From the NCBI RefSeq assembly GCF_000415985.1, contig NZ_KE356561.1:763043-797620 (forward strand): a stretch of DNA of 34,578 nt, given 5' to 3'. The DNA comes from Haloquadratum walsbyi J07HQW2. GTDB taxonomy: Archaea > Halobacteriota > Halobacteria > Halobacteriales > Haloferacaceae. The position numbers and the translations under genes were made by a program. A model generated the notes under the pieces. It was not told the DNA's origin, made no database searches, and saw nothing but the letters and a program-made list of their open reading frames with translations. Below are positions 7,063-34,578 of the stretch, in pieces. Position 1 is the first letter of the stretch. Each line of letters starts with the position of its first letter.

Positions 7063-8603
7063 TTAGATATAGCTTCTCAAGATAGCAACCAGTTGCAGCA
7101 ATATGATATGGATTCGTATGAAATATTCCACCAATTCGTGTCGATTAACATCCTCCATCCGCCTGAAGGCGGAGGAATCCCACGGCACCACACCACTGCG
7201 CTCCGCTGGATTGGGATCTGAGAGTTTGCAGTCTACTTGTTCCCTCGGTGAGAATCCGTGGGACAACTCATGAAGATAGACTGCTGGCTGTGCCAACCAG
7301 CCGGTACTCCTGTGTCCACACAAATCGGGTGCAGACTCGGAGTTGCGTTCGTTGATATCGAGACGGATATTCTCCGCTCCCGCTCCATTCACGTCCGCAT
7401 TGAACGCGGCCTCACACTCCTCGCAGACGGACAGACCACAGTCAACACGTCACGCTGACTCTCGTCTTCTCTCCCTCTCCCACACATACAACACGTCATG
7501 TCTTGCTCGTGTCGCGCTCAGACACTTCGATGCCTTTCACTTTCGCCTTGTATGTGAGAATCTTGCTGAAGCGACCGAACACCCACGCCCACCCGTGCAG
7601 ATCAACATTAAGATTCCCGTGCTTCCCCCAGTTCTTCGACTTGCCGTTCTCATCCTCACGGACGCCTTCCAAGTCTCCGACAGTGATTTGACTAACTCCC
7701 TTCTCAACACATCGTGAAGCGATGTGTTTCGCTATGGAGTGGAAAAAGTGCGTACGGCGTTCTGACCACTCCACTTCTTGTGTAATTTGGTGGCTCGGGT
7801 CCCACCAGCATCGTCGCAGGTGGCGATCTCCTGTGGGAAGGAGTAACCGTCCCGTCCTGTTTCAGGCGGTTGCCGGGGTACAGGTACAGGTCCAGGTTAG
7901 CGTCTTCTGTACCATAGGCGACAGCAACGAAGTTACTGATGCCAAGATCGATGCCTGCTGTCTTGTTGCCGGGTGCGGTGGGTATCTCGATGTCGTCCTT
8001 GCAGACGAGGTGTACCTCCCACCGCTCTTTCTGCTGGTCGGAGACGACCCTGACTTATTGTAGGTTTTTAACCTCTACGCCAGGGCGTGGCTCGTATTCG
8101 ACAAGGATGTACTCGCATGCGTTCGGGTTCGGGTGTTCCTTGTGAGTCGCGCCCTGTGAGAGTCGAATACGGTTGTTCTTGGTGTCGTGTTTGAAGCCGT
8201 TTTGTTTCCACGTCACCGTACCGTACTGCGCGGATGTTCCTCGTGGACACGACGACCCTCGTCGTCGGAGTAGTTTTCTTTGCGGTAGTCGGGCGGATTG
8301 TCTCGGTCGTCTTCCGAGGAGTACCACGACACGAGTTGAAGCTTTCAGCGAGTTCCTCCAGAACCCGCTGACTGGACTGTGAGTGCAGTCGCTTGTAGGT
8401 TGGGAGATCTTCAACTCGCGTTTCAACTCTTCGTGATCAGGAATCTCGCCCGTCTCTTCCGAGACCTCGCGGGAGCGGGAGTAGTAGTGATAGTTGGCGA
8501 CGTTCCAGAGTTTGCTGGCGCTCCACCCGTGACGGTCAAGAGACTCTGCAACCTGTGGGTGGTTACGGACTTTCGCTTGATGGGTGCGGTGGATCTACAG
8601 CAT
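7063..8603 (-). pseudogene. tnpB: Decayed TnpB (IS1341-type) gene
   Basis: Reading the minus strand from the ATG at 8603 gives recognisable TnpB pieces in order. These are an N-terminal stretch with RHGWSASKLWNVANYH; a middle part with WKQNGFKHDTKNNRIRLS; RuvC-I with AGIDLGISN (near 7950); RuvC-II with QITVGDLEGV; two zinc-knuckle pairs (CCMC and CEEC, near 7400-7480); and RuvC-III with FNADVNGA. The gene is dead: the third codon is TAG, a TAA interrupts it near 8055, and at least three frame changes are needed to join the pieces. The RuvC-II site has Gly where many TnpBs have the catalytic Glu. The last open frame runs to 7063, past the likely element end at about 7140, so its final 25 or so codons are flank. 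Confidence 0.85.
7150..7182 (-). ncRNA. 3'-end hairpin of tnpB element (candidate omega-RNA scaffold)
   Basis: A perfect 6-bp stem (TCCGCC/GGCGGA, 7158-7163 with 7168-7173) closes a TGAA loop inside the 3' end of the tnpB relic. In IS200/IS605 elements this position holds the subterminal hairpin and the sense-overlapping / omega-RNA. Whether this dead copy is transcribed is unknown. Confidence 0.45.
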
Positions 8604-26188: not shown

Positions 26189-26314
26189 TTCATTCTCGCA
26201 TGTCAGTCGCGAAAAACCCAACGTCGAACAAAGCTCTCGTATCCTCATAGTGGAAATATAAGACCGACCCCTGGCAGATTGGATATTTTGTTATAGAGAA
26301 ATACAATGTTCGCA

Positions 26315-27913
<1,599 letters not shown>

Positions 27914-30658: not shown

Positions 30659-30804
30659 CGAGTGATAGAATGACGTTGACTGTGGTATATGCTAGTAAAT
30701 TTTAGCTGCATATAGTAACCCAAGTGGTGATCATACATCCAGGTCACGATGTTTAAGTTGTGAATATCAGCCAAATCATAAAGCAAAATTAGTTTAGCTG
30801 ATCC

Positions 30805-30882
30805 TAGGCGGTAAGCCCCTTCCTCAAGAAGCAACGCAGACCGGTGATCGAGTAGCGCAGTAGGGAGCGGATACACCGCCGT
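30805..30882 (+). repeat. Right-end-like hairpin, opposite orientation
   Basis: GGCGGT (30807-30812) pairs with ACCGCC (30875-30880), and inside lie CCCCTTCCTCAAG and a CGAGTAGCGCAGTAGGGAG strand, the reverse complement of the CTACTCG...CTTGAGGAAGGGG right-end pattern. It is likely the end of an element that lay to the left and is otherwise gone. Confidence 0.42.
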
Positions 30883-31132: not shown

Positions 31133-32022
31133 ATGCACTACACCGACAGATTCCAGCTTGACCCAACGCCTGAACAGCGTGAGCGGCTGGATTATCACCG
31201 TGATACCTGTCGGCAACTTTACAATCATGCACTCAATGAGTTTGAGCAAATCCCTGAACCGGTCGGGACACTCAACCAATGTGTGCGAGAGGTTCGCCTC
31301 ATTCGCCGTCGACGGCAAACAGACACCCGAAAAACCCAGCTACCCCCGAGCGATGTGTCGAGACGGAATCAACGTTGGCATACTCAAATACGCCCACGGT
31401 ACCGATGAAACTGCTGTCGGATCGCTTGAATTGTCGGACGAACGCGACCGGTTGGAACGTGCCCAACGTGATCTCTCACGGAAAGAGCACGGCTCACACA
31501 ATTGGGAGAAACAACAGAAGGTCGTTGCCCAACGCCATGCTGACCTGAAACGAAAACGCCGTGAGTTCTTGCAGAAACTGTCGAACTACTACGCCACTGA
31601 GTCCGATCTCGTGGCTGTTGAGGATCTAGATGCGAGGGGGCTGGTTGCTGGTTGAACTCACTGGCAACTCTCGAACCCGAGCGTCGGAGGCGTGGGGAAT
31701 GGTCAAGCGGATGCTCGAATACAAATGCGACTGCGAAGGCACGCACTTTGCGGCGGTCGACCCGAAGTATACGACCAAGCAGTGTGGTAACTGCGTCGTG
31801 AAAACTGAGAACCCACCATCATGTGGGTTTGAAGTGGATCGGAACGCGAACGCGGCGATCAACATCCTTGCTCGCGGTCTGCAACAATGAGAAGTGGGAC
31901 ACTCCAAAGAAACGCCTGTGGAGATTGTGCTCCCTGTGAATACATCCATCTCTGCAAAGCGTGTCGTTGAAACAGGAAGCCCCACCCTCAAGGATCGAAC
32001 GGCTAACGCCGTGAACGAGTAG
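31133..32022 (+). pseudogene. tnpB: TnpB gene with deletions and frameshifts
   Basis: Recognisable parts in order: N-terminal MHYTDRFQLDPTPEQRERLDYH and CRQLYNHAL; after a shift, a shortened RuvC-I part (GINVGILKYAH, Asn for the usual Asp); LSRKEHGSHNWEKQQ; RuvC-II with LVAVEDLDARGL (Glu kept); then a further shift. The zinc ribbon has lost one arm (CGNC...PSCGF with the middle missing), and RuvC-III is DRNANAA. A TGA at about 31888 interrupts the tail, which otherwise ends GSPTLKDRTANAVNE then TAG at 32020-32022, inside the right-end stem. About 300 bases of the middle are missing compared with the copy at 33208. Confidence 0.85.
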
Positions 32023-32036
32023 GGTGGGGTAGTTCA
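31976..32036 (+). ncRNA. TnpB-element right-end hairpin (candidate omega-RNA)
   Basis: Outer stem of 9 bp: CCCCACCCT (31980-31988) with AGGGTGGGG (32021-32029). Inner stem of 5 bp: ACGGC (31999-32003) with GCCGT (32008-32012). Sequence and layout mirror 33192, with two base pairs swapped on both sides. It ends in TAGTTCAC, and the tnpB stop lies in the stem. Confidence 0.65.
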
Positions 32037-32070
32037 CACGGCACTGAGATACACTTCCAGTGGAATTATC

Positions 32071-33109: not shown

Positions 33110-33191
33110 TCGTTGGATTTCTTCGAGAGAATACTCAAGTTGGGTGTTTCCCTGATTTTAAGAGATTTCGTGCGGAAGATCAGCTATTGTC

Positions 33192-33254
33192 AGTGAACTA
33201 CCCTACCCTACTCACTCACCGCTTTCGCGGTTCGCTCCTTGAGGGTAGGGCTTC
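33192..33254 (-). ncRNA. TnpB-element right-end hairpin (candidate omega-RNA)
   Basis: Outer 8-bp stem CCCTACCC (33201-33208) with GGGTAGGG (33243-33250), and inner 5-bp stem ACCGC (33218-33222) with GCGGT (33227-33231), loop TTTC. The tnpB stop codon (33208-33210) lies at the edge of the outer stem, so the last 14 codons are also RNA structure. This is the only copy whose tnpB is intact. Confidence 0.68.
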
Positions 33255-34569
33255 TGTGCTCTCGCATTAGATTTTCTGCTTCTATAGCCAAATTAACGGC
33301 AGTATTTGAAAGTAGTGCATCACGGTGATGACTACCCTCAGAGATACCAGCCTCCACAGACATTGTGTTACTGCTGTACTCGGACTGTCCCAGCCCTAAC
33401 TCTTCCTTCTCAAACTCCACTCCCAATTTCTTTAATCCAAGCTGTTGAACTTCCAAAGACGAATTATAATCTCTATCTACTGTAAATCCACAGCTTGGAC
33501 AGGAATGTTCTCTCACCCATAATGGTTTGTCAGACCCAACACCACACTTCGCACATCGCTTTGTTGTTCCTTCTGGTGGTACTTTCACTATATGACATCC
33601 ATTCTTGTTTCCATGTCGCTCAAATGCTTGGATTGTCGCATACCACGACATTGCGGAGATATTCCGAGCGTTCCTATCCTGCTGAGTCATCGAAGCCACA
33701 TCCAAATCTTCAAGAAACACAGCATCGTATTCTTGCGTGTACCAGCAGGCGAGCTTCTCACGATAATCTTCTCTTCTGTTTCTCAATCTTTCATATGCTC
33801 GTACCAGCGACTGTCGGGCTTTATTCCAGTTCTCGGATTCGTATTGCTTGCGAGAAAGTGAGCGGTGTCGTCTCTCGACTCGCTCACGGTCTTTCTCCTC
33901 GTCCAGTCGGGCAAACGCCCGATTATCTGAATCGTGAATGAACTTGGTAATACCGAGGTCGATTCCAACAGTATCCTCTATAGAAATATTCTCGACAGTG
34001 GGCTTTTCTGGATAGTCAGCGTCGTATTTGACCACAATACTTACTGTCCAGTCGCCCGTTTTCTGCTTTTTGAGTATAACCTCAGTAATTTTAGCGTTTT
34101 GATTTTGTTTGGTTGGGAGTGGTCGATGGTAGTCCAAGTTGAAATTACCAATCTTCGAGAGGTTCACGATAGCGTGACCATCCTGACCCGTGTTATTATC
34201 CACGTCAAAGCCAGACTGGTTGTACTTTATGCTACGGTATTCTCGTGGTGATTTCCACTTGAGACGACCAACATCGAATCCACGTTCTTCGAGCGAGTCG
34301 AGGACACTTTCGCTATTTTTGATACGGCGAACTGCCATTTGAAGGCATTTTGAGTACACTCCTTTCCACTCAGACCATTCTCGCTTCCATTTGGGAAGCA
34401 TATTCTGCATCGTGTTATAAGACGGTTTGTTATGATCTGGTGCAGGTCTGTACTCTTGTGTGAGTGCGTGATTGTATACCTCTCGACAAGTCTGAATGGC
34501 ATTCCAAGCACTCTCAGCAGTAGTGGTGTCCTCTGGCACTGCTCGATATTGGAACGCTTCTTTTACCAC
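33208..34569 (-). CDS. tnpB: RNA-guided nuclease TnpB, apparently intact
   Basis: This 453-residue TnpB is the ancestor type of Cas12: a nuclease that uses an RNA from its own 3' end as guide. The N-terminal helical/wedge region (1-195, with CREVYNHAL) is followed by RuvC-I GIDLGI (Asp204), a long helix (RRHRSLSRKQYESENW), RuvC-II VFLEDLDV (Glu287), four zinc Cys (339, 342, 357, 360) and RuvC-III DRDYNSS (Asp367). All catalytic residues are present. The C-terminal 80 residues overlap the right-end hairpin. The start is a GTG at 34569, but the frame is open to the window edge, so a few N-terminal residues may be missing. No tnpA is seen. Confidence 0.92.
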   Translation of the reverse strand: MVKEAFQYRAVPEDTTTAESAWNAIQTCREVYNHALTQEYRPAPDHNKPSYNTMQNMLPKWKREWSEWKGVYSKCLQMAVRRIKNSESVLDSLEERGFDVGRLKWKSPREYRSIKYNQSGFDVDNNTGQDGHAIVNLSKIGNFNLDYHRPLPTKQNQNAKITEVILKKQKTGDWTVSIVVKYDADYPEKPTVENISIEDTVGIDLGITKFIHDSDNRAFARLDEEKDRERVERRHRSLSRKQYESENWNKARQSLVRAYERLRNRREDYREKLACWYTQEYDAVFLEDLDVASMTQQDRNARNISAMSWYATIQAFERHGNKNGCHIVKVPPEGTTKRCAKCGVGSDKPLWVREHSCPSCGFTVDRDYNSSLEVQQLGLKKLGVEFEKEELGLGQSEYSSNTMSVEAGISEGSHHRDALLSNTAVNLAIEAENLMREHRSPTLKERTAKAVSE

Positions 34570-34578
34570 TAATTCTGT

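What the first reader, a model, noticed from the sequence alone, without database searches (positions are those of the whole stretch)
33192..33254. Covarying nested hairpin shared by TnpB-element right ends, with the tnpB stop codon inside it
Three copies (26315-26380, 31976-32036, 33192-33254) have the same layout: GTGAACT/TGAACT, a G/C stem of 8-9 bp, a CTACTC strand, an inner hairpin where preserved, and GGGCTTC. Between copies the outer stem changes CCCTACCC/GGGTAGGG to CCCCACCC/GGGTGGGG, and the inner stem changes ACCGC/GCGGT to ACGGC/GCCGT; both changes keep pairing. The last codons of tnpB are read through the structure. IS605-group right ends carry TnpA-binding hairpins, and haloarchaeal sense-overlapping RNAs lie here, so the RNA may be the guide scaffold. 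The protein tail and the RNA are then under joint constraint.
Basis: partly seen in the sequence, partly recalled or inferred. Interest (0 to 1): 0.72.

Follow-up and report, generated by a model that had tools for sequence, protein, structure and literature searches.

The report
TnpB transposon right-end hairpin, archaeal omegaRNA
The hairpin is the right end of an archaeal "jumping gene": by sequence comparison the same bases mark where the transposase cuts the DNA, form part of the guide RNA of the TnpB nuclease and (in one lineage) spell the last amino acids of TnpB, which makes it a new example of a known type of system with unusually clear signs of overlapping constraints.

Summary
The three copies carry the described hairpin; its motif occurs 75 times in this genome, and a model of it hits 248 of 292 sampled genomes of the class. 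It is the right end of IS200/IS605 (IS1341-type) elements. Left ends obey the IS608 pairing rule in 127 of 138 distinct sequences. The element stops sharply at TTNAC; unique flank follows. Upstream, several hairpins covary, and a loop complementary to TTNAC is present in all three TnpB clades (UUC:GGA, UUU:AGA, UUG:CAA), as in the ISDra2 omegaRNA pseudoknot. So the hairpin is both a TnpA DNA site and a terminal omegaRNA stem; RNA production and guide use are inferred from published cases, not shown. The tnpB stop inside the hairpin belongs to one TnpB clade: the TTTAC clade stops upstream, one window copy reads through and one is broken. In the coding clade the inner stem switches mainly at the one pair where both bases are third codon positions (13 changes on the TnpB tree), so coding and structure are jointly constrained. 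Verdict: new members of a known kind.

The parts
33193..33258 (-). Right-end hairpin unit of copy 3 (model hit): GR GAAG 33254-33251, 5' outer strand 33250-33243, inner stem 33231-33227 / 33222-33218, 3' outer strand 33208-33201, spacer TAGT, CR TCAC 33196-33193
33208..33210 (-). tnpB stop codon TAG; its last base is the first base of the 3' outer strand
33173..33192 (-). Flank directly after TTCAC: presumed 20-nt guide TGACAATAGCTGATCTTCCG; no second site in the genome with fewer than 3 mismatches (18-mer searched)
   Evidence: guide role inferred from PMC11043419
33208..34569 (-). tnpB of copy 3: Pfam OrfB_IS605 and Cas12f1-like_TNB, NCBIfam guided_TnpB; the three RuvC motifs (GIDLGI, LEDL, DRDYN) and the zinc finger can be read in the translation
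33193..33396 (-). Predicted omegaRNA scaffold of copy 3: upstream stem GGGCTGGGACAGTCC (33396-33382), candidate pseudoknot strand GTGGA (33357-33353), right-end hairpin, TTCAC (33197-33193)
   Evidence: extent inferred
31972..32037 (+). Right-end hairpin unit of copy 2: GR GAAG 31976-31979, outer strands 31980-31987 and 32022-32029, CR TCAC 32034-32037
30794..30870 (+). Left end of copy 2: cleavage site CL TTAG 30794-30797 (within TTTAG; part of the flank), guide GL AAGC 30813-30816, left hairpin to 30870
   Evidence: obeys the rule measured
31158..31890 (+). Broken tnpB of copy 2 (OrfB_IS605 fragment, then a disrupted frame)
26315..26380 (-). Right-end hairpin of copy 1: outer strand 26330-26323, CR TCAT 26318-26315; GR/CR mismatch at guide base 1
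26190..26891 (-). C-terminal tnpB fragment of copy 1, whose frame reads through the hairpin
27472..27789 (-). tnpA fragment of copy 1 (Y1 transposase, profile positions 33-121 of 121)

Best explanation
The hairpin is the subterminal right-end structure of IS200/IS605-family (IS1341-type, TnpB-carrying) elements, and it is used twice. As single-stranded DNA it is the TnpA site: the tetranucleotide GAAG at its 5' foot (GR) pairs with TCAC (CR) four bases past the stem, and the transposase cuts after that C. As RNA, transcribed through the tnpB 3' end, it is the last stem of the omegaRNA (reRNA); UUNAC pairs with an upstream loop as a pseudoknot, and the flank directly after it is the guide that would lead TnpB to the empty donor site next to TTTAN or TTCAN. 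In one TnpB clade, to which copies 2 and 3 belong, the 5' strand and inner hairpin also encode the tail GSPTLKERTASAVSE, and the stop is in the outer stem. Shown here: anatomy, element end, stem covariation, guide/cleavage complementarity, upstream loop complementarity, and the coding restriction. Inferred: TnpA binding and cutting, RNA synthesis and processing, guide use.
For: Outer-stem pairs 4-6 and inner pair 29:38 change 13-23 times on a TnpB tree and stay 93-99% paired. GR1:CR2 is G:C 78, A:T 35, C:G 4, mismatched 7. Left-end guide base 4: cleavage base 4 is complementary in 127 of 138 distinct ends with all four pair types, shuffled means 22 and 29. Conservation drops from 1.73 to 0.14 and then about 0.01 bits right after TTNAC over 219 loci. 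Upstream stems covary, and the loop base matches CR2 in three clades: C with G 93 of 100, T with A 29 of 29, G with C 14 of 14, as in the ISDra2 omegaRNA pseudoknot (PMC10097598). An archaeal TnpB whose right end is UUCAC uses the sequence immediately after it as guide (PMC11043419). Haloarchaeal RNAs at this place are known (PMC12558985).
Against: No transcript, TnpA or TnpB data for these loci. Relatives were gathered with a model that includes the stems, which favours paired sequences. CR2 changed only about twice on the TnpB tree, so the right-end and pseudoknot matches rest on few independent events. In the TTTAC clade the pseudoknot shows no compensatory change. Copy 1 has a GR/CR mismatch. 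The two Rfam sot models do not hit these copies.
Confidence: 0.85

Rival explanations
1. Only a DNA structure: the hairpin is a TnpA substrate and any RNA folding is a by-product, since left ends and short PATE elements carry the same kind of hairpin without a guide.
For: Left ends share the TCAAG and GAGTA motifs and the guide rule; palindromes near both ends of Haloquadratum elements are published (PMC3119063).
Against: Stems upstream of the right end covary although they are not part of the TnpA hairpin, and the upstream loop base follows CR2 in all three clades.
Confidence: 0.1
2. Only an RNA structure: the hairpin and its GAA/UUC extension are an omegaRNA stem, and the match to TnpA guides is coincidental.
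For: RNAalifold pairs GAA with UUC as an extension of the stem.
Against: Left ends, which carry no guide RNA, obey the guide 4: cleavage 4 rule with all four pair types, and that cleavage base lies in the target flank.
Confidence: 0.02
3. An intrinsic transcription terminator of tnpB.
For: It is a strong GC-rich hairpin at the 3' end of the gene.
Against: No T tract follows the stem, the bases after the element are unconserved flank, and the conserved bases outside the stem obey the TnpA guide rule.
Confidence: 0.02
4. A domesticated copy: TnpB and its RNA act as an RNA-guided repressor (TldR-like) at a chosen gene.
For: Many tnpB copies here are disrupted, so some RNAs may have outlived their nuclease.
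Against: The three RuvC motifs are readable in copy 3, and the guides of copies 2 and 3 have no second genomic site with fewer than 3 mismatches.
Confidence: 0.01

Closest known systems
ISDra2 right end and reRNA/omegaRNA of Deinococcus radiodurans TnpB (PMC8612924, PMC10097598)
   Same: RNA from the tnpB 3' end plus right end; guide taken from the flank; terminal UUC pairs with an upstream loop as a pseudoknot although sequence alone predicts pairing with a GAA nearer the end
   Different: Here the pseudoknot is inferred from sequence, three terminal variants (UUCAC, UUUAC, UUGAC) exist, the hairpin is longer, and in one clade it contains the tnpB stop
Saccharolobus islandicus IS605-type TnpB7 (PMC11043419)
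   Same: Archaeal element whose conserved end is UUCAC, with the guide starting immediately after it; TAM TTTAA with no preference at the last base
   Different: Different organisms and TnpBs; function tested there, not here
IS608 TnpA ends of Helicobacter pylori (PMC5934647)
   Same: Subterminal hairpin with a guide tetranucleotide at its 5' foot that pairs with the cleavage tetranucleotide
   Different: Natural left-end guides here cover all four bases at position 4, with matching targets; TnpA recognition is not tested
Haloarchaeal sotRNAs/omegaRNAs, Rfam RF02656 and RF02657 (PMC12558985)
   Same: Same place at tnpB 3' ends, with a right-end hairpin and a loop:TEM pseudoknot described in Halobacterium salinarum
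   Different: These models do not match the three window copies; one matches another tnpB end in the window below its gathering score
PATEs and IS605-type elements of Haloquadratum walsbyi (PMC3119063)
   Same: Near-terminal palindromes shared by both ends; repeat-mediated loss of the core
   Different: That paper does not name the palindromes as guide/cleavage units or omegaRNA parts in the passages read

Membership tests
IS200/IS605 element end (TnpA site) | Subterminal hairpin near a sharp element end | tested here: met
IS200/IS605 element end (TnpA site) | Guide tetranucleotide at the 5' hairpin foot complementary to the cleavage tetranucleotide at both ends | tested here: met
   Right ends 117 of 124 at guide 1: cleavage 2; left ends 127 of 138 at guide 4: cleavage 4; copy 1 of the window is an exception
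IS200/IS605 element end (TnpA site) | Binding and ssDNA cleavage by a Y1 TnpA | not testable with these tools
   Only a tnpA fragment lies in the window, in copy 1
TnpB omegaRNA (reRNA) | Located at the tnpB 3' end and right end, with flank directly after it | tested here: met
TnpB omegaRNA (reRNA) | Conserved secondary structure with compensatory changes | tested here: met
TnpB omegaRNA (reRNA) | Pseudoknot between the terminal motif and an upstream loop | tested here: inconclusive
   Loop base matches CR2 in three clades, but CR2 changed only about twice on the tree and the TTTAC clade shows no compensatory change
TnpB omegaRNA (reRNA) | Transcribed, bound by TnpB and used as guide | not testable with these tools
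   No RNA or protein data for these loci
Rfam sot0042 / sot2652 (RF02656, RF02657) | Covariance model match at the three copies | tested here: not met
   No match at the three copies at E up to 1; genome-wide hits lie at other loci
PATE (short non-autonomous element) | Near-terminal palindromes without a transposase gene | tested here: not met
   The three window copies carry tnpB or remnants of it; some other copies look like short derivatives or left/right-end chimeras

The most novel reading that the evidence does not exclude
The right cleavage site is frozen because it has two pairing partners: GR in transposon DNA and the pseudoknot loop in the omegaRNA (plus codons nearby in one clade). 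This would explain why CR2 changed only about twice on the TnpB tree and why CR4 is almost always C, while left-end guide and target, which have no RNA partner, run through all four bases. The guide RNA of TnpB would then limit how TnpA specificity can evolve at the right end.
Probability: 0.4. Interest if true: 0.5.

Novelty: new member of a known kind. Interest (0 to 1): 0.33.

Why it matters
It supplies a class-wide right-end and omegaRNA family that the two Rfam sot models do not cover at these loci, places presumed guides and TAM candidates (TTTAN, TTCAN) for many archaeal TnpBs, and gives a natural case in which DNA recognition, RNA folding and protein coding share the same bases and their limits can be read from sequence variation.

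Tried and rejected
An R-scape-like test with simulated null alignments on the mixed TTTAC set gave no pair at E < 0.05; the set mixes divergent subfamilies, and I replaced it by a cleaned alignment and tree-based counts, so this negative result should be weighed. A plain k-mer search for sites complementary to TTNAC was inconclusive. A first regular expression for the TTGAC loop picked wrong sites and the one for TTTAC forced the tested base; both were redone with that base free. Exact empty sites for copies 2 and 3 could not be aligned: the intergenic flanks are not conserved and 20 masked bases lie at copy 3's left border. A terminator was rejected for lack of a T tract. A TldR-like repressor was judged unlikely.

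Full report
Observation. The three copies are real and fold as described. The motif of the 3' strand occurs 75 times in the genome with up to 3 mismatches, against 6 for the reversed control. The genome has 116 matches to the TnpB zinc-finger domain, in keeping with the roughly 90 tnpB genes reported per Haloquadratum walsbyi strain (PMC3119063). A covariance model built from 23 right ends of this genome hits 248 of 292 sampled genomes of the class.

What the flanks are. In IS608 a guide tetranucleotide at the 5' foot of each hairpin pairs with the cleavage tetranucleotide (PMC5934647; PMC6006769). In 124 distinct right ends of relatives, guide base 1 and cleavage base 2 are G:C 78, A:T 35, C:G 4 and mismatched 7. 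These classes follow TnpB clades and need only two changes of CR2 on a TnpB tree, so this alone is few events. The left ends are the stronger test, because there the cleavage tetranucleotide is the target that stays in the flank. With patterns that leave both tested bases free, cleavage base 4 is complementary to guide base 4 in 55 of 60 distinct TTTA ends and 72 of 78 distinct TTCA ends (shuffled means 22 and 29). Window copy 2 has such a left end: TTTAG at 30793-30797 and guide AAGC at 30813-30816.

Element end. Over 219 distinct loci conservation falls from 1.73 bits at the C of TTNAC to 0.14 and then about 0.01 bits. In two congeners the genes on either side of copy 3 are neighbours with about 155 bp between them and no element, and in one of them the genes around copy 2 are also neighbours without it. 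The exact joints could not be aligned.

RNA evidence. In the TTTAC clade, stems upstream of the right-end hairpin and the hairpin itself covary: 12 pairs with changes on both sides, 53 such cells against 15.5 shuffled and 1-11 in slid controls. In the TTCAC clade the stem before the loop is exchanged wholesale with pairing kept, though stems of that length are not rare in control windows, so the variety of compensated sequences is the argument and not the length. A loop complementary to the terminal UUN is present in all three clades with the variable base matched: CR2 C with loop G 93 of 100, T with A 29 of 29, G with C 14 of 14 (the search anchors were drawn from the clades themselves, with the tested base free). 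The ISDra2 cryo-EM structure has this arrangement: the terminal UUC pairs with an upstream GAA and not with the GAA that sequence alone predicts (PMC10097598). In that reading the terminal bases pair with the hairpin foot in transposon DNA and with the loop in RNA. Within the TTTAC clade the pseudoknot shows only one-sided changes. In Saccharolobus islandicus TnpB7 the guide begins directly after UUCAC and the last TAM base is not selected (PMC11043419), which fits the variable last base of TTTAN here. Haloarchaeal RNAs at tnpB 3' ends are published (PMC12558985).

Coding overlap. In the TTCAC clade the tail GSPTLKERTASAVSE ends at a TAG 18 nt before the element end in 78 copies; a second frame uses the TAG nearer the end. 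In the TTTAC clade the stop mostly lies 17 nt upstream of the modelled region, and 26 copies have no detectable tnpB. So the hairpin does not depend on coding. Where it is coding, inner pair 29:38, the only pair with both bases in third codon position, switches between G:C and C:G (13 changes on the TnpB tree; 50 of 51 paired against 26 by shuffling), while the other four pairs change little (1, 1, 4 and 6 changes); non-coding copies vary at all five.

State of the window copies. Copy 3 has a tnpB with all three RuvC motifs and a complete predicted scaffold, but no left-end hairpin is visible before a masked stretch. Copy 2 has both ends and a broken tnpB. Copy 1 has a tnpA fragment, a disrupted tnpB whose frame reads through the hairpin, and a GR/CR mismatch. 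None is shown to be active.

Limits. No transcript or protein data were available. Relatives were gathered with a model that includes the stems, which inflates pairing percentages but does not model the guide/cleavage or loop pairs.

Noticed in passing
window 7155-7348 (-): Match to Rfam sot0042 (RF02656), 55 bits against a gathering score of 88, at the 3' end of another, degenerate tnpB: a fourth element in the window with a different right-end family.
   Followed up: partly
left ends: Very similar left ends differ in the last base of both guide and target (TTTAA, TTTAC, TTTAG, TTTAT), so the matching TnpBs would have to tolerate any last TAM base.
   Followed up: partly
L045, L063, L251 right ends: Hairpins whose 5' half looks like a left end (CCCCTTCC TCAAG) and whose 3' half is a right end, as expected from recombination between the two ends of an element.
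   Followed up: no
   Followed up: no
L266, just beyond window position 34578: A 20-base run of N at the left border of copy 3, opposite the start of the neighbouring gene in two congeners; the element may have entered the 5' end of that gene.
   Followed up: partly
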